A stretch of DNA of 64,000 nucleotides from Echinococcus granulosus (Eukaryota; Platyhelminthes; Cestoda; Cyclophyllidea; Taeniidae). The stretch is from contig NW_020170405.1 in assembly GCF_000524195.1 (NCBI RefSeq), positions 352,970 through 416,969 of the forward strand, read 5' to 3'. The position numbers and the translations under genes were made by a program. The stretch's first letter is position 1; every line of letters begins with the position of its first letter. The notes beneath the pieces are model-generated. The model ran no database searches, was not told the DNA's origin, and saw nothing but the letters and a program-made list of their open reading frames with translations. Positions 3,606 through 57,700 of this stretch are shown one piece after another.

Positions 3606-3787
3606 CTAGTCAAGGATGGATCGCCCGATTAGGTTGGACGTCAAACAGTACCATGAGCCGTTAAGTAGAGAAGCAAGTGCTCAAAAAAATTTAATGGTCC
3701 ACAAATAACAGTGACAAGATAAGAAAAGTCCAAGCAACTTTTGCCTGTCAGAGTAAATGCACGTGGAGCGAAGATTGTCCATTCTAC
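3606..3787 (-). promoter_or_regulatory. Intercistronic region between lipin and ACBD6
   Basis: Only 182 bases separate the lipin stop from the ACBD6 start. The stretch holds an ATTAAA variant poly(A) signal (3695-3690), a T-rich tract next to it, and an AG directly abutting the downstream ATG. No separate promoter motif is evident. This is the arrangement expected of a flatworm polycistron resolved by polyadenylation plus spliced-leader addition, though no transcript evidence is available here. Confidence 0.4.
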
Positions 3788-5904
3788 CTAAGAGGGGGTC
3801 GGTGTTTCGGAAGGAATGGGTTCACGCCAGAAGGAGAAGGACGAAAAGAGGGACATATCTACATCAGAGGTGGGGACATTGTAGTCGGTGAATGAGACCT
3901 CTTCGTTCGCCTCTATTAGATCCGACTCGACTAACCTTGGTGAAATACAAGGGAAGAGGTAATCAGCGAGACTGACCATGTCGTTGAAAGACTTGCTGAC
4001 ACAGGGTAGGCGCTCGTTTCGTAGCTCACCTCCCGGATTCACCGTATATATTCGGCCTAATTCGAAACCCGATTCAATGTAAGCCTTCACATCATTGATA
4101 CGATTTCCAAATGCAGCATAGAAAGGGTTAGAGTCCGGTCCAAACAACTCCCTCACTTCTTTAAGACACTCGATTTTGAATAACTCTGGTGTCCGAGCGA
4201 TCACCTCGAGATGAAATGCATCGAGTAGGGATGTAGGCGACAGGAGAATTGGTCCACCTGGAAGGTGATACTTACCACGTTGACAAACCTGATCAATGTA
4301 ACCCCGCGTCAAATTTGCTTCACCGATGGCTCTAGCCGAGAGATAAATGAATTTGTAACCATTGTCAGCCAATCTGGAATACAGTTCAGCAACTCCTTCG
4401 TGGGTCCAATCACGCCCCAGCGCAGGGAGAAGGTGGCCAAGAATGTCTGAACGGGTTATAGTTCCGTCGACGTCGGAAACAATCACCTTGTCATCTGATT
4501 GCCAGAGATAAATCTTTGCCAAGCAGCTGGCGGTGCCCTGATACTTTGTGACTATCCGAAACTCAATGTTATTCGCACCTGGTCTCAATCCCAGACACTC
4601 CACCTCTCTTGAAGTAAGAGTGATTCTGCGTTGAGGCACTTGGCACTCCTCAGCCAAGGAAGCAGTGGCAGATGGAGGATGGTCGTTTCGTGTTTCTTGC
4701 GGAACCTCGGCCGTCGTTTTATCAGCATCCGTACTCGCGGTAGGCTGTGACTCGGGACCGCTCGTGCTCCAGGTGAACCAGGCTCTGCGGCGTGGTTGTT
4801 TCTTTGGCATAAAGGATTCCTCTAACCGAAGAACAGAGCCGTACGGTAATTCAGCTTGAAAGCAGACACGACTCAGTATCATAGGAGCAACAGTATTCCA
4901 ATTATAAAATTTTCCGTCAAATAAAAGGACGAGATTTGGGTTGGCAATGACGCCAGCGGGATCCTTAGAAAACTCCTCAAATGTCACCAAATGAGCGCAA
5001 AAGCGTTCGTGGTCCATTTGACCGTCAGTGGGAAGACCACCACATAGTGAGATTTTGAGTTCCAAGTTATTGGAGGAATCAAGCTTCAAGCAGGAACCAT
5101 TTCCTGAGTCCGATTTAGATCCAGCATCAGTAGCCTTCTGACCCGGATTCAAACGCTCATTCGATTTTCTAACATACAAATATGCTCGCTTAATATTTTC
5201 ATCAACTGATGGCGTCACAAGATCTTCCAAGTAAACACCCTTTTGATCAGAAGCTTGACAAGTCTGAAAACTCTTTGAGACTGAATCACCAACGGTTGGG
5301 TCTTTTTGAACAATATGCCCCACATCTGAAATGGCACCAAATCTCCTTGAATCCATATCACCACAAACCTGAACCATTCCACGAGATTGACTTCCCACTT
5401 CACTATCCGACAGACATTCAGGTGAAGTGGGAGAGGAAACGTAGTATTTAACATCCTCCTCCGTATTTGACTGGGACTCGCTGACGGACGCATCCCTCCT
5501 TGGCTTTTTAACGCGTAGAGGGTGTTTATGTGGATTTAAAGTCTTTCCATTAACATCTTCAGCTGAACGAATGCGTCCAATGGGCTTTCCTGAATCAAAA
5601 AATCCTTCCGCTGATGGTAAATCAGAATCACTGTCAGAAAAGAGCGATTCGACATAGTCCACAAAGTAGCCACATCCAGCCCTACCTAAACGCATATGTA
5701 GGTTTACGGCCTGCTGCCCGTTTATGTAAATCTCAACGAGCTTATCGGTTGGGTTGATTGCACCCATTTTACCAAATCGAACATGGAACGGTCCACACCT
5801 GAAATTACCACTCTTATCTTCCACAATAATTATGTCGTTGGCTCCAGTAAGTGTAGCAGGATTGATATCATTGTATGTTTTCTTAAACCCTGACCAAAGC
5901 CGGC
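3788..5904 (-). CDS. LPIN: Lipin, phosphatidate phosphatase (main exon; first exon not located)
   Basis: This one long exon encodes about 704 residues and ends at TAG 3790-3788. The N-lip domain is at its start (NDINPATLTGANDIIIVED, then GPFHVRFGKMG). The acceptor CTCTAG|GC lies at 5905, so a short upstream exon must supply the initiator Met and the first base of a Gly codon; I could not place it. Basic nuclear-localisation-like stretches KKPRR and KKQPRRR lie between the two conserved domains. The C-lip catalytic domain carries the DVDGT motif (DxDxT) at 4474-4460, followed by the family's SARAIG, GPILLSP and FGNRINDV segments, so it looks catalytically intact. Lipins dephosphorylate phosphatidate to diacylglycerol at the ER and also act as nuclear co-regulators. 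At roughly 710 residues it is shorter than the vertebrate proteins of about 900, mainly in the central linker. An ATTAAA poly(A)-like signal lies at 3695-3690. Confidence 0.93.
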
Positions 5905-7675
5905 CTAGAGAACGTCTTTAATTGGTAAATAGGCAACGCGAATAAAACATACAAGGGAATCATCCAACCAGAAAAATGTTTGCCCAAACAGTTTTAAAAC
6001 CGATGACCGAATGTGAATACACCCAAATAGAGCATTCAAATGATGGAAATTTTCAGGTGAGAACAAATGTCCTAGACAACAAGGCAATGAAGTGAGTAAT
6101 TTATAATAAATCAAAGTTTGACCTATAAATATCAGGGAACCTAGCACATTGGGCTATACGGACCTCTGTAGACGATAAATTATGATAGGATTCCAAATGA
6201 CAAATTAACGTATGAACATAAATAACGAACAATAACTATAATTACAACTTTGGCTTGCTAAAGGTAATTTGTTAGGATCAGATGTGCATGCGCAATACTT
6301 CCGGCGGGTACCGCTTCCACCCTATGAACCAGATCGACGGAACAAAAGGATTAACTTGAAGACGATATCGTAAGTAGTGTAGTACGAGGATTGTAGAAGT
6401 TATCCCATTTCAAGGTCTTCCGCTTTTATTTTCTCCTTCAGAGAGAGACATTCACCCAGCCATGAGGCTAGTGTAAGCTGACCGCTTATCACATGAAAGG
6501 CTTATATGTGCACCACATGCATGCACACATATGAGTATGCAGTAAACCCCCAAAACAACGCCATGCACGTCCCTTCTTAGTTCACTCAAAAGGCTTCGAC
6601 TAGTAGCATTATTTTGCCTTTGGTACATATTTTATTCCAAGACTTCGGTAAAGTACAAGTAGTTTGAAGCAATGTGGAAAAACGTGTTTCTTTATAAATT
6701 ATCGGATAAGCACGGGTATAAAAATATAGCCCAAGCGCGAAAACCCAAAGGCCGGTTACAGCTAGCAGAGTTGAGGGCGTGAGTAGATGAAAATGGCCTA
6801 ACAAAGTGGCAAGTAAACACATAGTCTTTCACTTTATTTGAGAAGGGTTCACTAAATCTATGTTTGTTTGATCTCTCGTACTGACTATCACAGAGCAGAA
6901 TGGGATTTAGAAACCACCCGCAAACTAAGGACACCAACCACCGAAACACCGCGTTTAGGAAGACATTTGATCCAATCATAGTTGAAGCGTGTACACAGCT
7001 CACCGTGTCGGAAGCTTCGTACCATTGGTTGACCGCATTAGAGAGAATGACTTGCGCTGACTTTGCAACTCGCATGCTGATTGCTAGTCGTGAAAGCATT
7101 GACCTAAACTAAAGCCACTTATTAAAAGATAAAAACTTGAGGCGGGTTTTCGGAACGGTTAATCCACATATGCACTCTTTCGCGCAATGTGCTTATTTTA
7201 GAGGTGGACGAAAATTGCCATTGTTATCCTCATGCGGCTCCCCCAAGCACCTAGCTAATTTACTGGTCCAAGTCGCTCAGGTAAATCGCTGGTGCGTTTG
7301 CTATGGCGCTCTTTCAGGACACTGAATTAGGGTAATTGCTAAAAGCATTTATCACTTTTGCCCTTATGTCAAAACTGAGCGCTTGCAAAGGTGTTTAAAA
7401 ATTTTCTGCTTTCGGCGAAAGTATTAAATTACTACGATATTGTATAAATCCTACATTTTCTTAAGTTTTTTAATTACAAAAAACTCTGTACCTATAATTA
7501 TTACTAAACGCCTTCAAGCTTTACTTTAGATTTGCTCTTGATTTAGTAAAATGTTTGGATGAGCGCAAGATATATATCCAGAAACCCGACTTTCAAACGT
7601 TAGGAGCGCACTACTTGAAACCCGCGAAAGTTAGACCGGGGTTAGGTTGGTCTCTTCCTTACCATTTGCTTCTAA
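5905..7675. other. Divergent intergenic region between lipin and ZFPL1
   Basis: This AT-rich stretch must hold the lipin first exon and both promoters. Short ORFs (for example 6692-7099 minus and 6900-7112 plus) overlap each other in conflicting frames and show no splice-site support or recognisable protein. I see no repeats or RNA genes. Confidence 0.4.
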
Positions 7676-15965: not shown

Positions 15966-16163
15966 TTTAGCGTCCCAGGACTCCATGAAGACGAAAGAAG
16001 GCACAATACTCGGGCAGAATATATATATTCAGGACGGAGAAGGTGTCTGGGCTATTGGCATCGCTCAAAAGGCCAGCCCGCCCAGCGAGGTACAAGGGGG
16101 CTAATTCAACGTACAAAAGTTGCGCCTCGCCAATGCCGAGGGATAAACCACTATCGCATTACA
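15966..16163 (+). repeat. TRIM-type solo LTR, subfamily A
   Basis: This copy of the dispersed LTR-like repeat begins TTTAGCGTCCC and ends CTATCGCATTACA, about 198 bases. It contains the family core GAAGACGAAAGAAG and CTCGGGCAGAATAT. Its 3' end reads GGGATAAACCACTATCGC, a variant shared only with the inverted pair at 16494-16866, which defines a subfamily. Confidence 0.75.
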
Positions 16164-16493: not shown

Positions 16494-16866
16494 TGTAGCG
16501 TCCCGAGACTCCCTGAAGACNNNNNNNNNNNNNNNNNNNNNNNNNNNNNNNNNNNNNNNNNNNNNNNNNNNNNNNNNNNNNNNNNNNNNNNNNNNNNNNN
16601 NNNNNNNNNNNNNNNNNNNNAGTGGCGCCTCACCAGAACCGAGGGATAAACCACTATCGTATTACATTGCAATACGTTAGTGGTTTATCCCTCGGTATTG
16701 GTGAGACGCCACTTTTGTGCTTTTAGATATGCCTCCTTGTACCGCGCTGGGTGGGCTGGCCTTAGGGCCACGCCAGCAGCCCAGACACCTTCTCTATGCT
16801 GAATACATATATTCTGCCCGAGTATTGTGTCTTCTTTCGTCTTCAAGGAATTGTCGGGACGCTACA
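16494..16866. repeat. Two TRIM LTRs joined tail to tail (inverted repeat) around an assembly gap
   Basis: A plus-orientation LTR (16494-16666, with 100 N at 16521-16620 inside it) is followed after a single base by a complete minus-orientation LTR (16668-16866). The junction reads GTATTACATTGCAATAC, so the two 3' ends face each other. The visible parts of the arms are closely complementary, with a few mismatches, and could form a hairpin of nearly 200 base pairs. The gap inside one arm is probably an assembly consequence of that inverted repeat. Confidence 0.75.
16521..16620. other. Assembly gap of 100 N
   Basis: Exactly 100 ambiguous bases, the usual placeholder for a gap of unknown size. 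Reading frames that run through it are artefacts. Confidence 0.99.
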
Positions 16867-25553: not shown

Positions 25554-26512
25554 TGTAGCGACTCCGGTCTTTCCTGAAGACGAAAGAAAAAATAATACAG
25601 GAGTAGAATATGTCTCCGTGTGGAGAAGGGTTGGGTGCTACTGGCTAAGCCCTGAGGTACAATGGTGTAGCCCTAAGTGGCTCGCTGCCAAAACCGAGAG
25701 TTAAGCAAACAAAGCATTAAGTAGCTCGTCCCCTCTTTTGAGCGTCGTCTCCCGCGCTCCCCTTGGTCAACTGCCCGCATCTGCCATCACAGTGTTGTTG
25801 GTGTCGTAAGGAAAAAAAACACCCATGAGCCATTTATCGAATTCGCATGCAACTGAGATATTTGACCACAATGTCAGCGGTTCTTCTTGCCATTTCTACT
25901 GGATCTGGTGTATCGTTTTGTACGGGAACTACATTAAGGGGAGGAGAAATGTGCTGACGATCTCATATGCCCATCAGCAGTCGTAGGAACACTAGCATAA
26001 AAGCAAATAACGGGTGTTAACATCCCATCAAATCATCCTTGTGACTTTGTCCTCACTTCAGTGCTGCCCAGCCACATCTATCCGGGTTCTATGCGGCTGG
26101 TAGACAGGTGGAGGGGCATCGTGTTTTTACGGTTAGTTTCGCTTCACTTGCTGATAGCATTCCTGTAAATCAAGGGACTAGAGTAGTCACCGAAGGTTGA
26201 TGTCAATTTAAACTCTTCCGTTAGGGGTCGTCACGGACTCACCCATCCTCACCATAGGGCTTTCTCCCATCAAGGTTTAGCATTCAGGAATGAAGGGGGT
26301 TTACTTTCCATTGCCACTAATGCAACTCTCTGAATCTTTCCGGAAGGCGAAAAAGTCATAATACTAGAGCAGAATATGTATTGCCGACGTACAGAAGAAC
26401 TGGGGGCTTCTTTCGCGTCCCGGAGGCCATTCCGCTAAGCAGAAGTACAAAGACATGGCCTTAAGTGACCACGAAACCAAAATGAAGTTGGACGAATAAC
26501 CAAAGTATTATG
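25554..26512 (+). mobile_element. TRIM-like element 1: LTR, about 600-base non-coding interior, LTR
   Basis: A 5' LTR (25554 to about 25720, starting TGTAGCGACTCC) and a directly repeated, diverged 3' LTR (about 26322-26512) flank an interior with no coding ORF. The interior shares several blocks with element 2: TTTTGAGCGTCGTC (25736-25749), a block around CCCAGCCACATCTATC near 26068, and another around GTTAGGGGTCGTCACG near 26221. Direct terminal repeats with TG...CA-type ends, a total under 1.1 kb and no gag-pol fit a terminal-repeat retrotransposon in miniature. Confidence 0.7.
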
Positions 26513-27854
26513 CTGCTTATAATGCTCGAACAACGAATTGTTTGGAAACGCAGAATTTCTCCCAACGCACCATCTTTCAAAGTCGACCATGAACCGACTA
26601 CGTTCGGACTCTCAAACCCAACTAACACGGAGAATCCTGGAATGTAAGCGAAAATAGCATTGCGTATTGAACACATTCAGAAAGCCTAGCTCATTTCCAC
26701 AGCTGAAATAATTCCGGTTACCTTATCCAATCATGAAAGTGGGAGGTAAATTACACGCTTCAGTATCTTTGCGAAGGTGAAATATTACATGAAGTGCCTA
26801 ATGAAGAATTGAAAACGCCTCCAAGAGATGTGACCCCTAAAACCGCTGCATACCCAAAAAGCAACATATTAATTACCCTCATAGATGACAATAAATTAGG
26901 TATTAGGGTAGGAATGAGTGGAATGTCATCAAAATCTGGTGAGAAGAGTATCTTTGGTGGGGCGGCTTGACACTTGTGTGCATACCGCACAGGTATGGGT
27001 GGAGCTGATTCATTAGTACTAGCTGATTCATGTATCTTGATAGAGAATCCCACTGACTTTGATTATGAGTGAAAAAATAAATCATATTCTATTATGGGAT
27101 TATATTTAAGGTCAAAGTAATTCCAACAATTGGTAGATAATTCGCCTCGCCATTCTTCCACCTATGTCTTGTGTAGTTGTTCGGTCAGTCTGCCAATTTC
27201 CTATCGTGTATACCTATAAATGACCTGGATAGTGAATCTACTAAGGAATGCAACTGACTTGAGACAGTTTTTAAGCATTATTATGAGGAAGCTACTATTA
27301 GTATTTATAATTAGTTCACTATTGATACATAAAATTGTATTGCTTTTCTAGGAGTACCTGTTATATTTGTGTTGATTGTAAAGAATCGCTATGGTTTAAA
27401 ACAGACAGTGTAGTTCATAGGAATCACTAAGTAGGAAATCGCACACAAAGCATCAGATGATTAATTTGTCACGCAGAACATACTGAGCTCAGCATGTTGC
27501 TCTTTTACGTGACATCAAGTTGCGGTGGTAAAAACACTTTATTCACTGATTCCAAGCACCTTGCTCATGGCTGAAGGGGATCACACACTTGAGGCAGAAG
27601 ATGAGGCACTAAAGGCACGAGCTGTTGGCGCGTGGAGCCCCATCCACTCAAGTGCATGACGCCCCATCAAGCCGCATTCGACTTCTGATTGTGGTGCCAC
27701 ACCTCGTGATTGAAAATTTTAATTGGATTCACGCATTTAATTCTTTTATTTAAAAGTCCACTGAGTAACATACATTTCTCGCTATTCTTTGGTTTTTGAG
27801 TAAAATGTATTCGCATTTTCAAGTGTTTGTGAAAGATTATCAATAAGGTCATCT
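26513..27854. other. Spacer between two TRIM-like elements
   Basis: AT-rich sequence with a few short ORFs (26760-27053 minus and others) that lack splice signals or recognisable similarity. I see no gene. Confidence 0.4.
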
Positions 27855-28904
27855 TGCAGCGCCCCAAGACATCCCTTAAGACGAAAGAAGACAAACAATT
27901 CGGGCAGAATATGCATCGCCTACGTACAGAAGGACTTGGTGGCTACTAGCATGGCCCAAAGGCCAGGCCGTGGGCCAGAGTTACAACGGCGGGGCACCCA
28001 AGTAACCTCTTTATCAAGGCCGAGAGTTAAACAAGCAATCGACGTATTGTGCAACCCCTCTCCGCTTTTGAGCGTCGTCCTCGGCGCTTCCCTTAGTTAA
28101 CTTTGCTTGATGGCCGCAAAACTTAGTTGATGCTGCAAGGAGAAATACACAGAAGCCAACCTCACCAATCATCGAATTCTTGTGCAATTGCAAAAATACT
28201 TGACCGTAACATACTAATTCTCCTTTACATTTCTCTTGATTATAGTTTTCTTCCTGTTTGGGAAATGAATTCGGGGAAGGGGAAATGGACTGGCCATCAG
28301 GAGTGCCCATAGCTAGTCGCTAGAATTTCTCCACTCTGCGTTGTCCTCATTTCAGAGATGCCCAGCCATATCTATCTAAGTTCTATCAAGCTACCATAGA
28401 AGTGGACGAGGCATCGCGTTTTCAAATATTTGATTTCTTCATGCAGGAAAGTTAGCTTCGTAACTATTTTTTTCAGATGGCTCACGGGTAATGAGACCTC
28501 AGTTGTTAATAACCTTCCTGCAGACCACGGGAATGGAGTAGTTGTCGAAGGTAGACATTTTCATCTATTCTGTTAAGAGGCATCACGTAATCTCCATCCG
28601 CAGTATATGCAATTCATCCGCCCAATTACGGCTTATCACCCATCAGCAGAAATCAAGACAAGTTCTGTGAGATCATTTTCGCCTTCCTTTGCCACCAATT
28701 TATCATCTCAAGACTTCCCTGAAGACGAAAGAATACAATACCAGGGGAGAATGTATATGTATATATTATCAACCTACGGTAGGGCTTGGGGCCTCTTGCA
28801 TCGCCCAGGGGCCAGCACACTCGGCAAAGGCACAATGCTAAAGTACCCAAGTGGCCTCTTTACTAAAACGAAGAATTAAACAAATTAACAACTAGACTAT
28901 TACA
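27855..28904 (+). mobile_element. TRIM-like element 2: LTR, non-coding interior, LTR
   Basis: The 5' LTR (27855 to about 28051, starting TGCAGCGCCCC) and the 3' LTR (about 28701-28904, ending ACTAGACTATTACA) are in direct orientation. The conserved interior block TTTTGAGCGTCGTC lies at 28066-28079, about 15 bases after the LTR, the same spacing as in element 1. Other blocks shared with element 1 include CCCAGCCATATCTATC near 28362 and GTTAAGAGGCATCACG near 28574. Total length is about 1050 bases with no protein-coding frame, so the element must depend on enzymes made elsewhere. Confidence 0.72.
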
Positions 28905-29565: not shown

Positions 29566-29764
29566 TATAGACCCTGAGTACTTCACTGAAGACCAACGAC
29601 GACATAATACTCGGGCAGAATATGTAAATTCGACATCAGAAGGGCTTGCAGGCTACTGGCATGGCCCGAAGGCCAGTCCACCCGGCGAAAGTACACTGGT
29701 GAAGCACCCAAGTGGTCCCTCTTCCCAAACCGGGAGTTAAAAAAAAAACAACTAACGCATTAAA
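29566..29764 (+). repeat. TRIM-type solo LTR
   Basis: A diverged full-length LTR copy running from TATAGACCCTGAG to CAACTAACGCATTAAA. It keeps the core ATACTCGGGCAGAATATGTA and GGCTACTGGCATGGCCC. No interior sequence follows, so it is a solo LTR. Confidence 0.7.
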
Positions 29765-32178: not shown

Positions 32179-32371
32179 TGTAATACTGTTTTTTTACTCT
32201 CGGTTTTAGGAAAGGATTACTTAGGGCTCAGCCATTGTGTTGTCACGGAGCGGCCTGGCTTCTGGGTAGTGCTAGTAGCCACCATCCTTAGCTCTTCTTT
32301 ACATCAGCAATACCTTTGCTGTTTCTGTGGGGTAACTTCTTTCGTCTTTAGGAAAGACTCAGTGCACTACA
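32179..32371 (-). repeat. TRIM LTR, probably the 3' LTR of a partial minus-strand element
   Basis: A 193-base copy in minus orientation, from TGTAATACTG to AGTGCACTACA. The sequence that follows at 32440-32600 shares a block with the interior of the other elements (GACTCTTAACAGAAGAG at 32494-32510). The order therefore fits a 3' LTR plus part of an interior; I could not identify the 5' LTR beyond it. Confidence 0.65.
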
Positions 32372-32439
32372 TTGGTGGCAGCAGAGAGCGAATTCGATGC
32401 TAAAAGGCAAATACCTCTAATTTCTATTACTAAATTCTG

Positions 32440-32600
32440 TACCTTAGCGTGACGGAAGATGAACATATGCTACGAATGGGAGAATCTGCAATGACTCTTA
32501 ACAGAAGAGTTGAAAATGATGTCTGCTTGTCCGCAGGGATCCTATTGACACCTGAAGCGATACTAGCCGTGAACCATCTATAAAGTTAACATTCAAGTCA
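32440..32600 (-). mobile_element. TRIM interior fragment
   Basis: This block is closely similar to 36780-36960: both contain GGGAGAATCTGCAA, then CTCTTAACAGAAGAG or CTCCTAACAGAAGAG, then AAATGATGTCT. On the minus strand it matches the interior blocks of elements 1 and 2 around GTTAGGGGTCGTC. Confidence 0.55.
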
Positions 32601-35600: not shown

Positions 35601-36779
35601 CCTGATTAAATAACAAATGACGTGCCTGACCATTCATTAAACTGACATTTAATTGCCCCTTAAAAGTAAAAATCGCATCTCCTTGAGCAAGCAAGTACTA
35701 AACATCAAAGTAATGAGGTGGTCCAAGCTCTTATTAGTGCAAACATATTTACCTGAAGCATCTCCACAGAAGTGAACATCTTGAAAATATCTTCCTTCCA
35801 ACTTTAAAAGGTCATTAATTTGTAAGAAGGCCTAAGCTGTCTTTATTTTATTCCCGTAAGCCTTACATTACCCGATCCTCCTCACAACACTAGCACAAAG
35901 CAAAATAAATATTTTATGCTAACCTATTACCAAAGGGATCTCCTTGAGGTATAATTGAAGTTTGCCACTTAAATTCGGCTGAAGCATAGATTATGTGAGT
36001 TTGCTATCAACTTTTAATCAAATTTGAAGTGGTATTAATTCAATCTTAATTCATCATCTTTGGTGGCATCGCTAAGTGCAGAACGCACTTTGGCGTTGCC
36101 ACCGGTTTTTTAGGCCCAGCATAACCAAACACAGCCATAAACTTAAAATGTCACTTCTAATCAGATCATGGCATAGAGAGTAGGCACCAGTTTCCTTATC
36201 CACGACGCCTCACCTCCTTGCTGAACCATAATTGCTCGTTCCACCTGCACTTCTGCCACCACTCACTTCCAACGGGCGCTTCAAATCCACCCTCACAGAG
36301 TTTTGGCAATCTGCTTTTAATGACAGGAGTAACTTTCAAGATGTGACCGTTGAGATGAAATTTCAGTAGGGAATAGTAAGGTTTACATTATGGTAAAGCT
36401 CAGTATGCAAAGAACCAATAAAAATGATGTAGAATCCTACATAACACTTTATTTAACTGTTGAAAAGTTGCGCCATATCCGTGCCATCAGAGTGAATGCA
36501 AAATTGGCGAATATTAGTCAAAAGGTCAAAATTTTTTATCAATGTAAGATTTAAAAATTTTCCGATGCAATAAATACATCTTTTGATACCTCTTTTGAGA
36601 AAGCTTATGTCAACCTTAACAAGCAATCAACAATGACAGGTTTATAAACTCTTGTGCACGTCCGTAAGATGCCTTCTGCTATACGGTTTTAGCTTTACAT
36701 AACTTCGAAAACGACTCGGGATGGCAGGGAATCCGATCCCAAAGTACAACAACCCTGATTTCCATTCCTGAATAGTAAA
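32601..36779. other. About 4 kb with no confident gene
   Basis: Mostly AT-rich sequence. A 99-codon plus-strand frame at 34474-34773 (MFKHVFSDGEWEDRTNFVS from its third Met) contains a plausible donor G|GTAAGG, but I see no partner exon. A minus-strand segment near 36340-36225 (GSEWWQKCRWNEQLWFSKE before a GTGAGG donor) reads like an exon, but its acceptor is weak. A perfect palindrome of two E-boxes lies at 35581-35600. Confidence 0.3.
35581..35600. promoter_or_regulatory. Palindrome of paired E-boxes
   Basis: CAGGTGAC-TGCT-GTCACCTG is a perfect 8-base inverted repeat. Each arm contains a CAGGTG/CACCTG E-box, the core bound by bHLH and Snail/ZEB-type factors. It is intergenic and over 4 kb from the nearest assigned start, so regulatory function is only a possibility. 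Confidence 0.3.
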
Positions 36780-37554
36780 CCTTAACGCGACGGAACAAAG
36801 CCATCTGCTGGTGTTGGGAGAATCTGCAACGACTCCTAACAGAAGAGTTGGAAATGATGTCTACCTTTGCCAACTATCCAGTTTTCCGTTCTGCCGGAAC
36901 GCCATCAACATCGGAGGCGGCACTGGCTATGAATCATCTGGAACGATTCGTTATGGAGCTGTCTGCGGTGCCTGCATGAAGGTATCAACTAAGTAAAGAG
37001 GCGATACCTCCTCTACTGGGCAACACTGAAGTAAGACCAATCTGGCAAGGAGGAATTGGCCCAAAACCTTATCCCCAAAATCTTTTCAAGCACCGTCCCT
37101 TATTAACTAACTCGGCTTTTTTGGCCAGTGTTCTGACGATTAGCGATGGGCATACGAGATGGCCAGCACATCCTTCCTTTCCGCAAACACAATTCCCAAA
37201 CTGGACAGACCTCCAGACTTAGTGGAAACGCCAAGAGGTAGCAGTAACTTTGCGGTGAGGCACCTCATCAATTGCACCCGAACCCAATAAGGGGAACGGT
37301 TGGTTCGTGAGGTTGTTCCGCAGCGCCCCAAACGTTGTGGTGAGCCGGAGACGCTCAAAAGAGAAGATGGCTTATATAATGCTTTGATGACTCATTTAAC
37401 TCTGCGTTTGAATAAGCAGCCGCTTAATTCCCCGAAGATTGTACTTTTTCTTGCCGGTTACGCCTCCGGGTCATGCCGGTAGCCTCAGCTCTTCTGTGCT
37501 TTGGTAATGTAGTCAAGACTTTTTTCGACTTTGGGGAAGACTCGATGCACTGCA
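36780..37554 (-). mobile_element. Partial TRIM-like element in minus orientation
   Basis: The 5' LTR (37554-37375) runs on the minus strand from TGCAGTGCATCGAGTC to TATA. The interior begins beyond it with TTTTGAGCGTCTCC (about 37360-37347), again about 15 bases after the LTR. The interior continues to about 36780, with the CTCTTCTGTTAGGAGTCGTT block near 36847. No 3' LTR is recognisable at the low-coordinate side, so the element is truncated or decayed there. Confidence 0.6.
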
Positions 37555-44571: not shown

Positions 44572-44756
44572 TGTAGCACCCCTAGACTTCCCTGGTGATA
44601 GAAGAAAACATAATATTGGGCATAATATATGTACATATTAGACATACAGTAGGGCTTGTTTCAAAGGCCAGTCAACCCGGCGAAGGTACAATGGTGGAGA
44701 TCCAGCTTGGCCCCTGTACCGAAACCGAGAGTCAAACAAACAACTAACGCATTACA
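44572..44756 (+). repeat. TRIM-type solo LTR, subfamily B
   Basis: A well-preserved solo LTR of 185 bases, from TGTAGCACCCC to ACTAACGCATTACA. It shows the TG...CA termini and the subfamily B end (GAGAGTCAAACAAACAACTA). Confidence 0.8.
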
Positions 44757-47149: not shown

Positions 47150-47347
47150 TGTAACACTTTAATAGTTTGCCTAACTCTCAGTTTCGGCAACGGGCCACTT
47201 AGGAGTCCCGCCTGTGTATGTCCACCGGGCGGCCTAGCCGCCGGGCCATGCCAGTGGCCTTCCAAGCCCTTCTGTACGATGACAATACATATTCTGTCCG
47301 AATTTTATGTCCTATTTCGTCTTCAGGTAAGTCCCGGGGGGGCTGCA
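47150..47347 (-). repeat. TRIM-type solo LTR
   Basis: A 198-base LTR copy in minus orientation, from TGTAACACTTTAATAG to GGGGGCTGCA. It includes the conserved CCGGGCCATGCCAGTGGCC and ACATATTCTGTCCGA segments. Confidence 0.75.
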
Positions 47348-48026: not shown

Positions 48027-48230
48027 TTTATGCAATGCTTTAATTGTTTGCTTAGCTCTTGGTTTCTGTAACGATCCACTTAGGGCTCGATTTATTGCAC
48101 CTCCGCCGAGCGGCGCGGCCTTTGAGCCATGTCAGTAGCCTCTCAGCCCTTCTCTGCGTCGGCAATGCACATGCTGACCGAACATTATGTCTTCTTTTGC
48201 CTTGAGAGAAATCTCAAAGCGCCACATTTA
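48027..48230 (-). repeat. TRIM-type solo LTR with a 4-base target duplication
   Basis: A 196-base LTR (48031-48226, minus orientation, TGCAATGC to GCCACA) is flanked on both sides by TTTA (48027-48030 and 48227-48230). A 4-base target-site duplication of this kind is expected from integrase-mediated LTR insertion and helps fix the LTR ends. Confidence 0.75.
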
Positions 48231-54576: not shown

Positions 54577-54754
54577 TGTAATGCTTGAATTGTTTGTTTG
54601 GTAAGGGGACATTTAGGGGTTCCCTATTGTACTTCCACCGAGTAATCTGGCCTTTAATCCACGCCAGTAGCCCCAAGTCCTTCTGTTTGTCAGTAATATA
54701 CATTCTCTCAGAGTATTACGTCTTCTTTCGCCCTTAGGATGGTCTCGGGACGTC
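54577..54754 (-). repeat. TRIM-type solo LTR
   Basis: A diverged minus-orientation LTR from TGTAATGCTTGAATTG to TCTCGGGACGTCA. It keeps CACGCCAGTAGCC and the TCTTCTTTCGCCCTTAGG core. Confidence 0.7.
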
Positions 54755-57700
54755 AAGGAAACCGCTCACCTCAAATGCTTTTAGAGTTGTTTTATTATTC
54801 GCATTCAACGTGTGAGCCTTTGTGCTGTGATCTCACAGATTCAGCCCGACACGAACGTAAAAGTACAGCGACTTAGATAAAGTCGCTTAAATTGCGTGCA
54901 CATACACACATACATTTGTGGATATGGACATTGATGCATGCAACACCATTGAAAATACTTTATGGTGTTACCAACGCTGAATAAGTGTGAATGCTCGCGG
55001 TGGTTGGCACAGGCGGCTGATGTCGTTTACAATGCCCAGTAATGACCCATTTAGGGAGGGTAAATACTGTGCCCTTCCTTAGTTCCCCTCTTAGACATCT
55101 TTGGCGACCACCGAATCTACTTTGCTCAAGCAGTCCTGTGAAGCCCTTTTTAATAAAAACGCTTCAACCGAGGGTTAAGCACGGTGGTTTAATCCACACA
55201 AATTAACTTTTCCGCGAAAGGAGTGGCAAAAGGCCCGATATTCCCCCTTACTTTGACCAAGTGTACTCTTGAATAAACGTGCAAAATCAGTGAACTCACG
55301 AAAATATTGTCTGTAAATCACGATAAAACGGGAAAAATTGGTGGAATTCCAGCCCTTCTTGAAGATGAAATATGACGTAAATACTAAACATGTGCAAATT
55401 TATCCTTGTTTAATACCGGGACATAATCGCGTATGTATTCAAATGTGCACATACTTGAGCTGGTCTTAGTGAAGGAAAGATCCGCTTTCATCTTTTTGCA
55501 ATGTATGGAACGGTTCAGATTATTGGTAGACGCTGCTACCTGTCATCGATAAAGGAGAAATAATGAACCAAATATGCTGTCATTTAACTTCTTCAAGTAA
55601 TTTTGAAATTAAAGATCATTCATTGCCTCCCAAGATACACTGTATCAACGGTGACATTATAGCAAAGCAGAAGCCTTAAGAAAATTGGCATAAAGTTCAC
55701 GTTTCCATTGATGAAGCGGAACGATTATTTCATAGACTTCTTTATTCATAAGCAATGCTTATCGAGCCTTTTTAAAGCAAGTCGTGCTTTGGCACGAGTA
55801 ACGCAGTCTCTAATGTTTTGTACAGACCATTCTGGAGATTTTAATTAAGAAACTACGCTTGGAGACACGAGGAAAGTGAACAAATCGAGAGATCAGAGTG
55901 CTTTAGATTATCATCATTTAAGGCACCAAAACAATGTTATTAACGGTGCAAATTCCTGGTTAATTAAATGCTTTAAAGCCGTCATAACCGCTTTTAGGAA
56001 TCAACCGTTCCGAAACTTCATTCAAAAGAGGTTCCAGTTAGTAAAAAAACATCTCAAAGCGAATGCTTTCATTGGAAGTATGTCCGTAGTGTTGAATACT
56101 CTCAAATGAAATTTCCAGCGCATTATTTCTCTGGTAAAATAACAGAACGACTCAGGGAGTTTACGGCTTTGAGTGCATAAGATATACCGGCCAACCTCAA
56201 CTGCAATTATAGGGGAAACGAAAATTTAATTCGATAAGGAATACTCATATAGGACGATAAATCCTATGACAAGAAATTAGGGCAATAATGGAAATTCCCA
56301 TACAACAGTGAGCCTAAATTTTACCACAAAATGATATTTTCACATGAGTGCATCAAGTGCCAAAAAGCAGACCTTATCGGTGAATCCGACTCTACATAAT
56401 TGTCTACACTTACATTGACGCTACCTTATGAATTTTTACGAAGCAAGCAAAACATGTGGAGCATGGAGTTTTTGCTCGGAAGAAAAACACGTTTCTAATT
56501 CACCACTTGGGTCCTCGTGAGCATAGTAGCGGGAAATATATACCTACAGAGTGCTTGTGCCTGTATATTTGTTCACTCACCCGAAAGTGCGTGTTTAAGC
56601 AAATTTTTGTGTCTAGATAAGCGCAAATGATATACGAGTGTTTGAGTTTCTAAGTCGGGTGTGTGCGTGTGCGACGGAGAGCCGTAGAAAATGTTTGATT
56701 CTGATTACCCGGTCTACTCTTGCGTGTTAGGCCGCAACACAAGACATATCTCTAATCGCTGCACCCTTTATGCAATAGAACTTGAGTAATTCAAACATCT
56801 CCTCTAGCAGTCTAATTTACTGTGCGTGCCTTTCTCGATTAGAATCTGATGTGGTAGTACTCATAACCTGCCTTTAATACCAAGTAATCAGTTGCTGTTG
56901 CTTCTTTCACTACGTTGGCGATCGCTACTGAATGTGTAATGACATTATGAAGAAAAAACGGTGTTTATAATAAAGAGTATATTCAGTCCTCTCGGTAGCC
57001 CTCATGCTTACAATACTAATATGGGAAAAAGGATATATTACAACTTGAATTTTTTTTGACAATTGTTTGAATTCTTCTACCTCAGCTACTTCGAAGGTTG
57101 TACACGTCCAAATTAACATCTACTTGTAAGGTTATTCAATAAATTGTTAAAGTTTAAAATACACTATTGCACTATATTCCAATTTCAGGTTAACTTTTGT
57201 TTGAGCAAGATCATTATCGCTGCTCTGGATTTGGGAAATATGTGTGTAAATCAGGGGCATTAATCCATTAACTATAGAAATTTGTCTATCTCATAAACAA
57301 TATTCGTGATTTGCGAATGAATATATATAACATTGAGCATCCGAAAAACCCCTTAAAATCATTTAAAGAATCCGATCTTTTCCAAAATACTCAGGTATAA
57401 GTAAGGTGGGCCATGCTCCGCTTCTAGGTAATTTTTAAGAATTTGTTTAAGTAAATTTTTTCACTTGTGATTCTGGAGGTAATCCACTTACACAGTAATA
57501 CGAAGATTTCTGCAAGTAAAGCAATATTAATGTCTACTATTTAAAAAGGTGAAAAGATTCTCACTAGATTTAGAGCGCAACGAAAGTGATGTCTCAGTAT
57601 TGCTGATGATGTCAAATATTGACACACTATTGACAACCAAATGAAAGCTTTGTTTGTTAATTCCGCAGTTTTCGTTAGCCCTCCCACGAACTAAAATAGG

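What the first reader, a model, noticed from the sequence alone, without database searches (positions are those of the whole stretch)
25554..28904. A family of miniature LTR elements (TRIMs) with non-coding interiors
Two elements of about 0.96 and 1.05 kb share direct terminal repeats of about 165 to 205 bases with TG...CA-type ends. Conserved interior blocks occur in the same order, and TTTTGAGCGTCGTC lies about 15 bases inside the LTR in each. No coding frame exists. At least 14 LTR copies or fragments lie in this 64 kb. TRIMs have been described in taeniid tapeworms; whether this is the same lineage cannot be told here.
Basis: partly seen in the sequence, partly recalled or inferred. Interest (0 to 1): 0.75.

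Follow-up and report, generated by a model that had tools for sequence, protein, structure and literature searches.

The report
Old tapeworm miniature retrotransposons (ta-TRIM copies)

Summary
Two LTR-bounded, non-coding elements lie at 25554-26512 (A) and 27855-28896 (B), both with their sense strand on the minus strand. The window holds about 13 related LTR copies or fragments; the reversed control holds none. They are ta-TRIMs, the taeniid TRIM family of Koziol et al. 2015 (PMC4558846). Better preserved genomic relatives have LTRs of about 198 bp, ~590-bp interiors, a 15-base PPT three bases before the 3' LTR, 4-bp target duplications, and exact matches to three published ta-TRIM primers (a fourth has none). 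Gene primers point to Echinococcus, probably not E. multilocularis. A and B are fossils: LTR pairs only about 61-64% identical in a multiple alignment, no target duplication left. Other copies have LTRs only 3% apart.

Two refinements. It belongs to a ~46-nt tail shared with lennie-like elements, the partner Koziol et al. proposed; the text I read claims only LTR-tip, PBS, PPT and TSD similarity. (2) If the tRNA's CCA is counted, the PBS is probably 12 nt, one base from the LTR, instead of nine at four bases; the primer tRNA gene was not found here. The family is known, so interest is modest.

The parts
25554..26512 (-). Element A, decayed full-length ta-TRIM, 959 bp
25554..25721 (-). 3' LTR of A
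25722..25749 (-). PPT and pre-PPT block of A (holds motif TTTTGAGCGTCGTC at 25736-25749 on the + strand)
26308..26320 (-). Degenerate primer-binding site of A (sense TTAGTGGCAATGG)
26321..26512 (-). 5' LTR of A
27855..28896 (-). Element B, decayed full-length ta-TRIM, 1042 bp
27855..28051 (-). 3' LTR of B
28052..28079 (-). PPT and pre-PPT block of B (motif at 28066-28079 on the + strand)
28686..28698 (-). Degenerate primer-binding site of B (sense TTGGTGGCAAAGG)
28699..28896 (-). 5' LTR of B
15966..16163 (-). Solo LTR, well preserved
16494..16666 (-). LTR with a run of N inside, head to head with the next
16668..16866 (+). LTR, head to head with the previous one, 1 base apart
29568..29764 (-). 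Solo LTR, decayed; the end search did not find its far end, so the low coordinate is that of the BLAST interval
32306..32587 (+). Truncated ta-TRIM: LTR piece, PBS-like TTGGTGGC, start of interior
36726..37311 (+). ta-TRIM interior, decayed, followed by a PPT-like tail; no LTR interval there
44572..44756 (-). Solo LTR
47150..47347 (+). Solo LTR
48031..48226 (+). Solo LTR with 4-bp duplication TTTA on both sides (the end search missed these ends; checked)
54577..54757 (+). Solo LTR or fragment, 3' end weakly located

Best explanation
A and B are old, inactive insertions of ta-TRIM, the non-coding miniature LTR retrotransposon of taeniid tapeworms, in a genome that is probably Echinococcus. Mechanism (inferred from anatomy and from established LTR-retrotransposon biology): Pol II transcribes the element from LTR to LTR. 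Proteins supplied by an autonomous Ty3/gypsy element, most likely of the lennie (Saci2) type, package the RNA. A tRNA-Leu primes minus-strand synthesis at TGGTGGCAGCGG just after the 5' LTR, and the purine tract just before the 3' LTR primes the plus strand. The partner's integrase recognises the shared TGTAATAC...CA tips and inserts the DNA with a 4-bp target duplication. I take this tail to be the cis signal that lets the partner's enzymes use the TRIM. Shown here: anatomy, TSDs, family identity and shared tail. Inferred: transcription, packaging, trans-mobilisation. The tRNA identity rests on the published work. The confidence given is for family identity; for lennie as partner I put about 0.7.
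For: Three published primers match copies of this family exactly. LTRs near 198 bp, interior near 590, total near 990 in the best copies. 26 of 50 motif sites have exactly 15 purines, CTA, then TG, the layout stated in PMC4558846. PBS TTGGTGGCAGCGG is exact in 15 of the 25 well-bounded copies (their selection used a looser pattern that includes this site). TSD: 11 of 24 exact at 4 bp and 20 of 24 with at least 3 of 4, against shuffled means of 0.94 and 3.5 (maxima 5 and 9); 0 of 24 exact at 5 bp. Homology of A and B to three other copies runs through the element with gaps. Partner: L051 has LTRs starting TGTAATA, 95% alike, TSD GTAG, a PBS-like site and an integrase core domain. Its 3' tail aligns with ta-TRIM at scores 46-62 against null maxima of 28-36 in 7 of 9 copies tried.
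Against: In the same test the two window copies did not exceed the null against lennie (B 31 vs 32, A 23 vs 32). A and B have no TSD, no TG start, and LTR pairs no more alike than LTRs of different loci. One of four published primers has no exact match. No tRNA-Leu with the needed 3' end was found in this assembly. The 50 copies were picked by the exact motif, which favours conservation there. Outside the motif, the 12 nt of the tail match at a median of 9 of 12, which 0.25% of shuffles reach. The eight further lennie-like copies were picked because their match ran past the LTR. L051's PBS matches TGGTGGCAGCGG in 9 of 12 bases only.
Confidence: 0.96

Rival explanations
1. The elements are ta-TRIMs, but a Ty3/gypsy element other than lennie mobilised them.
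For: Koziol et al. suggest a different partner in Taenia because TSDs there are 5 bp. Only two of the 12 regions with integrase hits were read, and only one of them (L051) gave a bounded element.
Against: 4-bp TSDs here; the lennie-like L051 shares TSD length, LTR tip, most of the PBS and a long PPT tail.
Confidence: 0.2
2. SINEs: tRNA-derived short elements moved by a LINE.
For: Short, non-coding, high copy number.
Against: Two direct terminal repeats, PPT, PBS and 4-bp TSDs; no tRNA or other RNA family in the window.
Confidence: 0.01
3. A and B are not single insertions but chance neighbours of solo LTRs with interior pieces between them.
For: LTR pairs within A and within B are no more alike than LTRs of different loci; no TSDs.
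Against: LTR, PBS, interior, PPT, LTR are collinear over ~1 kb in both, as in three other copies.
Confidence: 0.03
4. The tail shared with lennie is convergence on a generic purine tract, not common descent or a shared signal.
For: PPTs are purine rich in LTR elements generally, so a part of the match is expected; the copies compared were picked by the motif or by the tail itself.
Against: The 21 nt before the A run match at a median of 17 of 21 over 49 copies (null mean 7.3, maximum 13), while the next 24 nt upstream match at 7 of 24. The block is seen in the 9 lennie-like copies read.
Confidence: 0.15

Closest known systems
ta-TRIM, taeniid terminal-repeat retrotransposon in miniature (Koziol et al. 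2015, PMC4558846)
   Same: LTR length and tips, PBS, PPT length and offset, interior length, no coding frame, 4-bp TSD as in Echinococcus, exact matches to three of four printed primers.
   Different: The two window copies are more decayed than the E. multilocularis LTR pairs which that paper dated (6.1-22.9%). The youngest pair here (3.0%) is younger than its youngest E. multilocularis pair, though not than its youngest T. solium pair (2.2%).
lennie, a Saci2-type Ty3/gypsy LTR retrotransposon (PMC4558846; PMC12471100, passages only)
   Same: Proposed partner. L051 shares with ta-TRIM the LTR tip and a 4-bp TSD; L051 and eight further copies share the PPT tail; L052 has 11 of 12 PBS bases one base after the LTR end, L051 9 of 12.
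   Different: LTRs of 237 bp, without detected similarity to ta-TRIM beyond the tail and, in some copies, the first bases of the LTR; carries protease-like and integrase sequence.
EgRep repeat of E. granulosus (described in PMC4558846 as a ta-TRIM solo LTR)
   Same: Solo LTRs in the window are of this kind.
   Different: EgRep was not compared directly; its sequence was not at hand.
TRIMs of plants, ants and bivalves
   Same: Same reduced plan: LTR, PBS, PPT, no genes.
   Different: [quoted passage not shown] bivalve TRIMs seen in a listing only; not tested here.

Membership tests
ta-TRIM | Two LTRs of about 198 bp, TG...CA | tested here: met
   196-200 bp in the best preserved of the 25 well-bounded copies. 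In window copies A and B: 192/168 and 198/197 bp, TG starts lost.
ta-TRIM | PBS complementary to a tRNA-Leu near the 5' LTR | tested here: inconclusive
   TTGGTGGCAGCGG present, 15 of 25 exact; the tRNA gene itself was not found in this assembly.
ta-TRIM | PPT of 15 bases, three bases before the 3' LTR | tested here: met
   15 purines, CTA, TG exactly in 26 of 50 motif sites; not in A or B, whose tracts are altered.
ta-TRIM | Interior near 590 bp, no ORF over 120 codons | tested here: met
   Interior 589-594 in six copies, others shorter or longer; longest stop-free run 90 aa in L001, 101 in B, 58 in A.
ta-TRIM | TSD of 4 (Echinococcus) or 5 bp (Taenia) | tested here: met
   11 of 24 exact at 4 bp, 0 of 24 exact at 5 bp. 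Not met for A and B themselves.
ta-TRIM | Sequence identity to published ta-TRIM | tested here: met
   Exact match of three of four printed primers in copies of the family. Full published sequences were not at hand.
ta-TRIM | Expression in larval stem cells | not testable with these tools
   No RNA data.
ta-TRIM | Placement in a phylogeny with published copies | not tested
lennie (for L051) | First eight LTR bases as in ta-TRIM | tested here: met
   TGTAATAC in the 5' LTR (TGTAATAT in the 3' LTR).
lennie (for L051) | 4-bp TSD | tested here: met
   GTAG on both sides.
lennie (for L051) | PBS of eight bases for the same tRNA-Leu, at the same distance as ta-TRIM | tested here: inconclusive
   Same place, but L051 has CGGTGGTAGCGC (9 of 12 bases of TGGTGGCAGCGG); the related L052 has TGGTGGCAGCGC (11 of 12), holding the eight bases TGGCAGCG.
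lennie (for L051) | Ty3/gypsy Saci2 Pol | tested here: inconclusive
   Integrase core PF00665 above cut-off; a protease-like match below cut-off. No tree was made and the published lennie sequence was not at hand.
SINE | Pol III promoter from a tRNA or other small RNA, no LTRs | tested here: not met

The most novel reading that the evidence does not exclude
The ~46-nt 3' tail (20 nt before the PPT, the PPT and the LTR tip) is a functional module, kept in common by ta-TRIM and lennie although the rest of the two elements has diverged beyond recognition. It would be the recognition unit for plus-strand priming or integration, which makes the partner of a TRIM readable from sequence. The primer-binding site is 12 nt, one base from the LTR, in place of the published nine at four bases.
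Probability: 0.5. Interest if true: 0.45.

Novelty: already known. Interest (0 to 1): 0.3.

Why it matters
The family is known, so the window copies add fossils to it. What is useful is the link to a partner. PMC4558846 states that no specific mobilising element had been proposed for TRIMs in any species, and it argued for lennie from the LTR tip, PBS, PPT and TSD length. A shared tail 20 nt longer than the PPT strengthens that case. It also gives a simple sequence test for the open question of which element mobilises ta-TRIMs in Taenia, where target duplications have a different length.

Tried and rejected
Global pairwise alignment with cheap gaps gave 75-85% identity even between an LTR and a shuffled one, so its identities for A and B were dropped in favour of local scores with a null and a multiple alignment. 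Three tRNA-Leu patterns and the Rfam tRNA family (63 of 4447 candidates scored) found no tRNA-Leu with the required end. In the two chance hits L049 and L050 neither ARAGORN nor Rfam finds a tRNA; the two sites, two mismatches each, were not followed up. Clustering of LTRs: the window has 14 intervals, against 10 in 114,318 bp of flanks of other copies (5.6 per 64 kb). These flanks were not random and the window was chosen for its repeats, so I make no claim. A SINE reading was rejected. A BLAST of L051 pieces against all held DNA found no lennie copy in the window. The first LTR-pairing script stopped with an error after five elements and was run again with changed scoring, where 36 of 50 sites gave an LTR pair above the cut-off.

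Full report
Setting. Rfam (gathering scores) and ARAGORN find nothing in it.

Identity of the family. I read 50 motif-bearing sites: the two in the window and 48 of the other 154. Read on the sense strand (minus in the window), the motif precedes a purine tract and an LTR. In the better preserved copies an LTR of about 198 bp, TGTAATAC...GACGCTACA, is followed by TTGGTGGCAGCGGAAAGC, an interior of about 590 bp, the purine tract AAAAGAGGAGGGAGG, CTA, and the second LTR; 26 of the 50 sites have exactly 15 purines, CTA, TG. This is the anatomy given for ta-TRIM in PMC4558846, of which I read the abstract, parts 2 and 3 of the text, sections 18, 19, 20 and 24, and passages. Of four ta-TRIM primers printed there, three occur exactly in 13, 12 and 18 of the 65 sequences held; the fourth, over the motif region, has no exact match.

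Window copies. Element A is 25554-26512 and element B 27855-28896, both on the minus strand. Alignment with three genomic copies shows LTR, PBS, interior, PPT and LTR in one order. LTR pairs score 67.5 and 111 against shuffle maxima of 33 and 39; under a stricter scoring A's pair was below my cut-off. They have decayed: in the multiple alignment the pairs are 61% and 64% identical, no closer than LTRs of different loci (medians 58-66% to 44 LTRs), no LTR start is TG and no target duplication remains. Their LTR divergence of 25-39%, by method, is near or above the intron divergence of 30.3% between E. multilocularis and T. solium quoted in PMC4558846. I infer insertion around or before the split of these genera, with the caution that 160-190 sites of degraded sequence are a poor clock.

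Other copies. Of the 50 sites, 25 had all four LTR ends located by pattern. Two of these (L010, L011) are the same duplicated sequence, and dropping L011 leaves 24. Of the 24, 11 have an exact 4-bp target duplication and 20 match at three or four of four; shuffled pairings give means of 0.94 and 3.5; none is exact at 5 bp. LTR pairs of 23 of these (one holds N) differ by K2P 0.031 to 0.39, i.e. 2.2 to 27.5 million years at the intron rate of PMC4558846. The lowest raw difference, 3.0%, is below the lowest reported for E. multilocularis (6.1%) and above that for T. solium (2.2%).

Organism. The primer for EmuJ_000465100 is found exactly on C242 (one further site and one control hit, within two mismatches) and that for EmuJ_000118100 with one mismatch. 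The LTR primer of the solo LTR before EmuJ_000465100, which PMC4558846 finds in E. multilocularis and not in E. granulosus, has no exact match among 14 sites within two mismatches, and none of these is on C242. With 4-bp duplications this points to Echinococcus other than E. multilocularis. The species remains open.

Partner. Integrase domains are few by profile (12 matches from 20 candidates), but a piece of L051 finds 154 matches (150 of 205 candidates scored), many with stops. L051 contains an LTR element with LTRs at 3714-3950 and 6377-6612, 95% identical, starting TGTAATA, with duplication GTAG and an integrase core. After the 5' LTR it has CCGGTGGTAGCGC, 9 of 12 bases of TGGTGGCAGCGG. 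I take it for lennie, the partner proposed in PMC4558846; PMC12471100 (passages only) places lennie with Saci2 of Ty3/gypsy. L052, 79-86% alike to L051 in two blocks, has TGGTGGCAGCGC at the same place. The published lennie sequence was not at hand.

Shared tail. In L051 and the eight further copies fetched because their match ran past the LTR, the LTR is preceded by forms of TAGCACCGGGGACGGCGCTAAAAGGACGAGGGGGCTA, in four of them with N further upstream. The best local alignment of L051 with ta-TRIM copies falls on this tail in eight of nine trials. The score exceeds all 60 dinucleotide shuffles in seven; window copies B (31 against 32) and A (23 against 32) do not. The 21 nt before the A run match in 17 of 21 (median of 49 copies; one was left out for N) against a null of 7.3 (maximum 13). 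The 12 of these outside the selected motif match in 9 (0.25% of shuffles reach this), and the next 24 nt upstream match in 7. Four further 3' ends, found by the interior upstream of the motif and lacking the exact motif, keep decayed forms of the block to a varying degree (by eye). The parts of PMC4558846 that I read name only LTR tip, PBS, PPT and duplication length as shared; its figure 3 could not be seen. In the listings no title or start of abstract takes this up; beyond PMC4558846, only passages of two listed papers (PMC5327563, PMC12471100) were read.

Primer-binding site. PMC4558846 compared the region with predicted tRNA genes and gives nine complementary bases at four bases from the LTR. 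The four bases are TTGG here, and TGG is the complement of the CCA added to tRNAs after transcription (general knowledge). Counting it, the site is TGGTGGCAGCGG, 12 nt, one base from the LTR. The tRNA gene could not be found in this assembly, so this remains an inference.

Verdict. It is a known family, the window copies are fossils, and the novelty lies only in the extended tail shared with the likely partner and in the corrected PBS.

Noticed in passing
window 16494-16866: Two LTRs head to head, one base apart, on opposite strands; the first holds a run of N.
   Followed up: partly
L063 (G000:C245:659020-659680): Two ta-TRIM solo LTRs tail to tail with the same four bases at three places: CTAA-LTR(+)-CTAA-LTR(-)-CTAA (by eye), as if the second insertion used the target duplication of the first. 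L061, L062 and L064 also have neighbouring or nested LTRs. These are four places among the 40 scored candidates; no test against chance was run.
   Followed up: partly
window 36726-37311 and 32306-32587: Further ta-TRIM interiors, decayed or truncated, on the plus strand.
   Followed up: partly
window 3788-5824 (-): Long ORF (678 aa) that reads like a lipin/phosphatidate phosphatase exon; the name is recalled, not searched.
   Followed up: no
G000:C128:71179-77179 and 141979-147979 (L010, L011): Two places about 71 kb apart gave the same ta-TRIM alignment and flanks, and the lennie search also found an equal-scoring pair on C128: a segmental duplication or an assembly duplicate.
   Followed up: no
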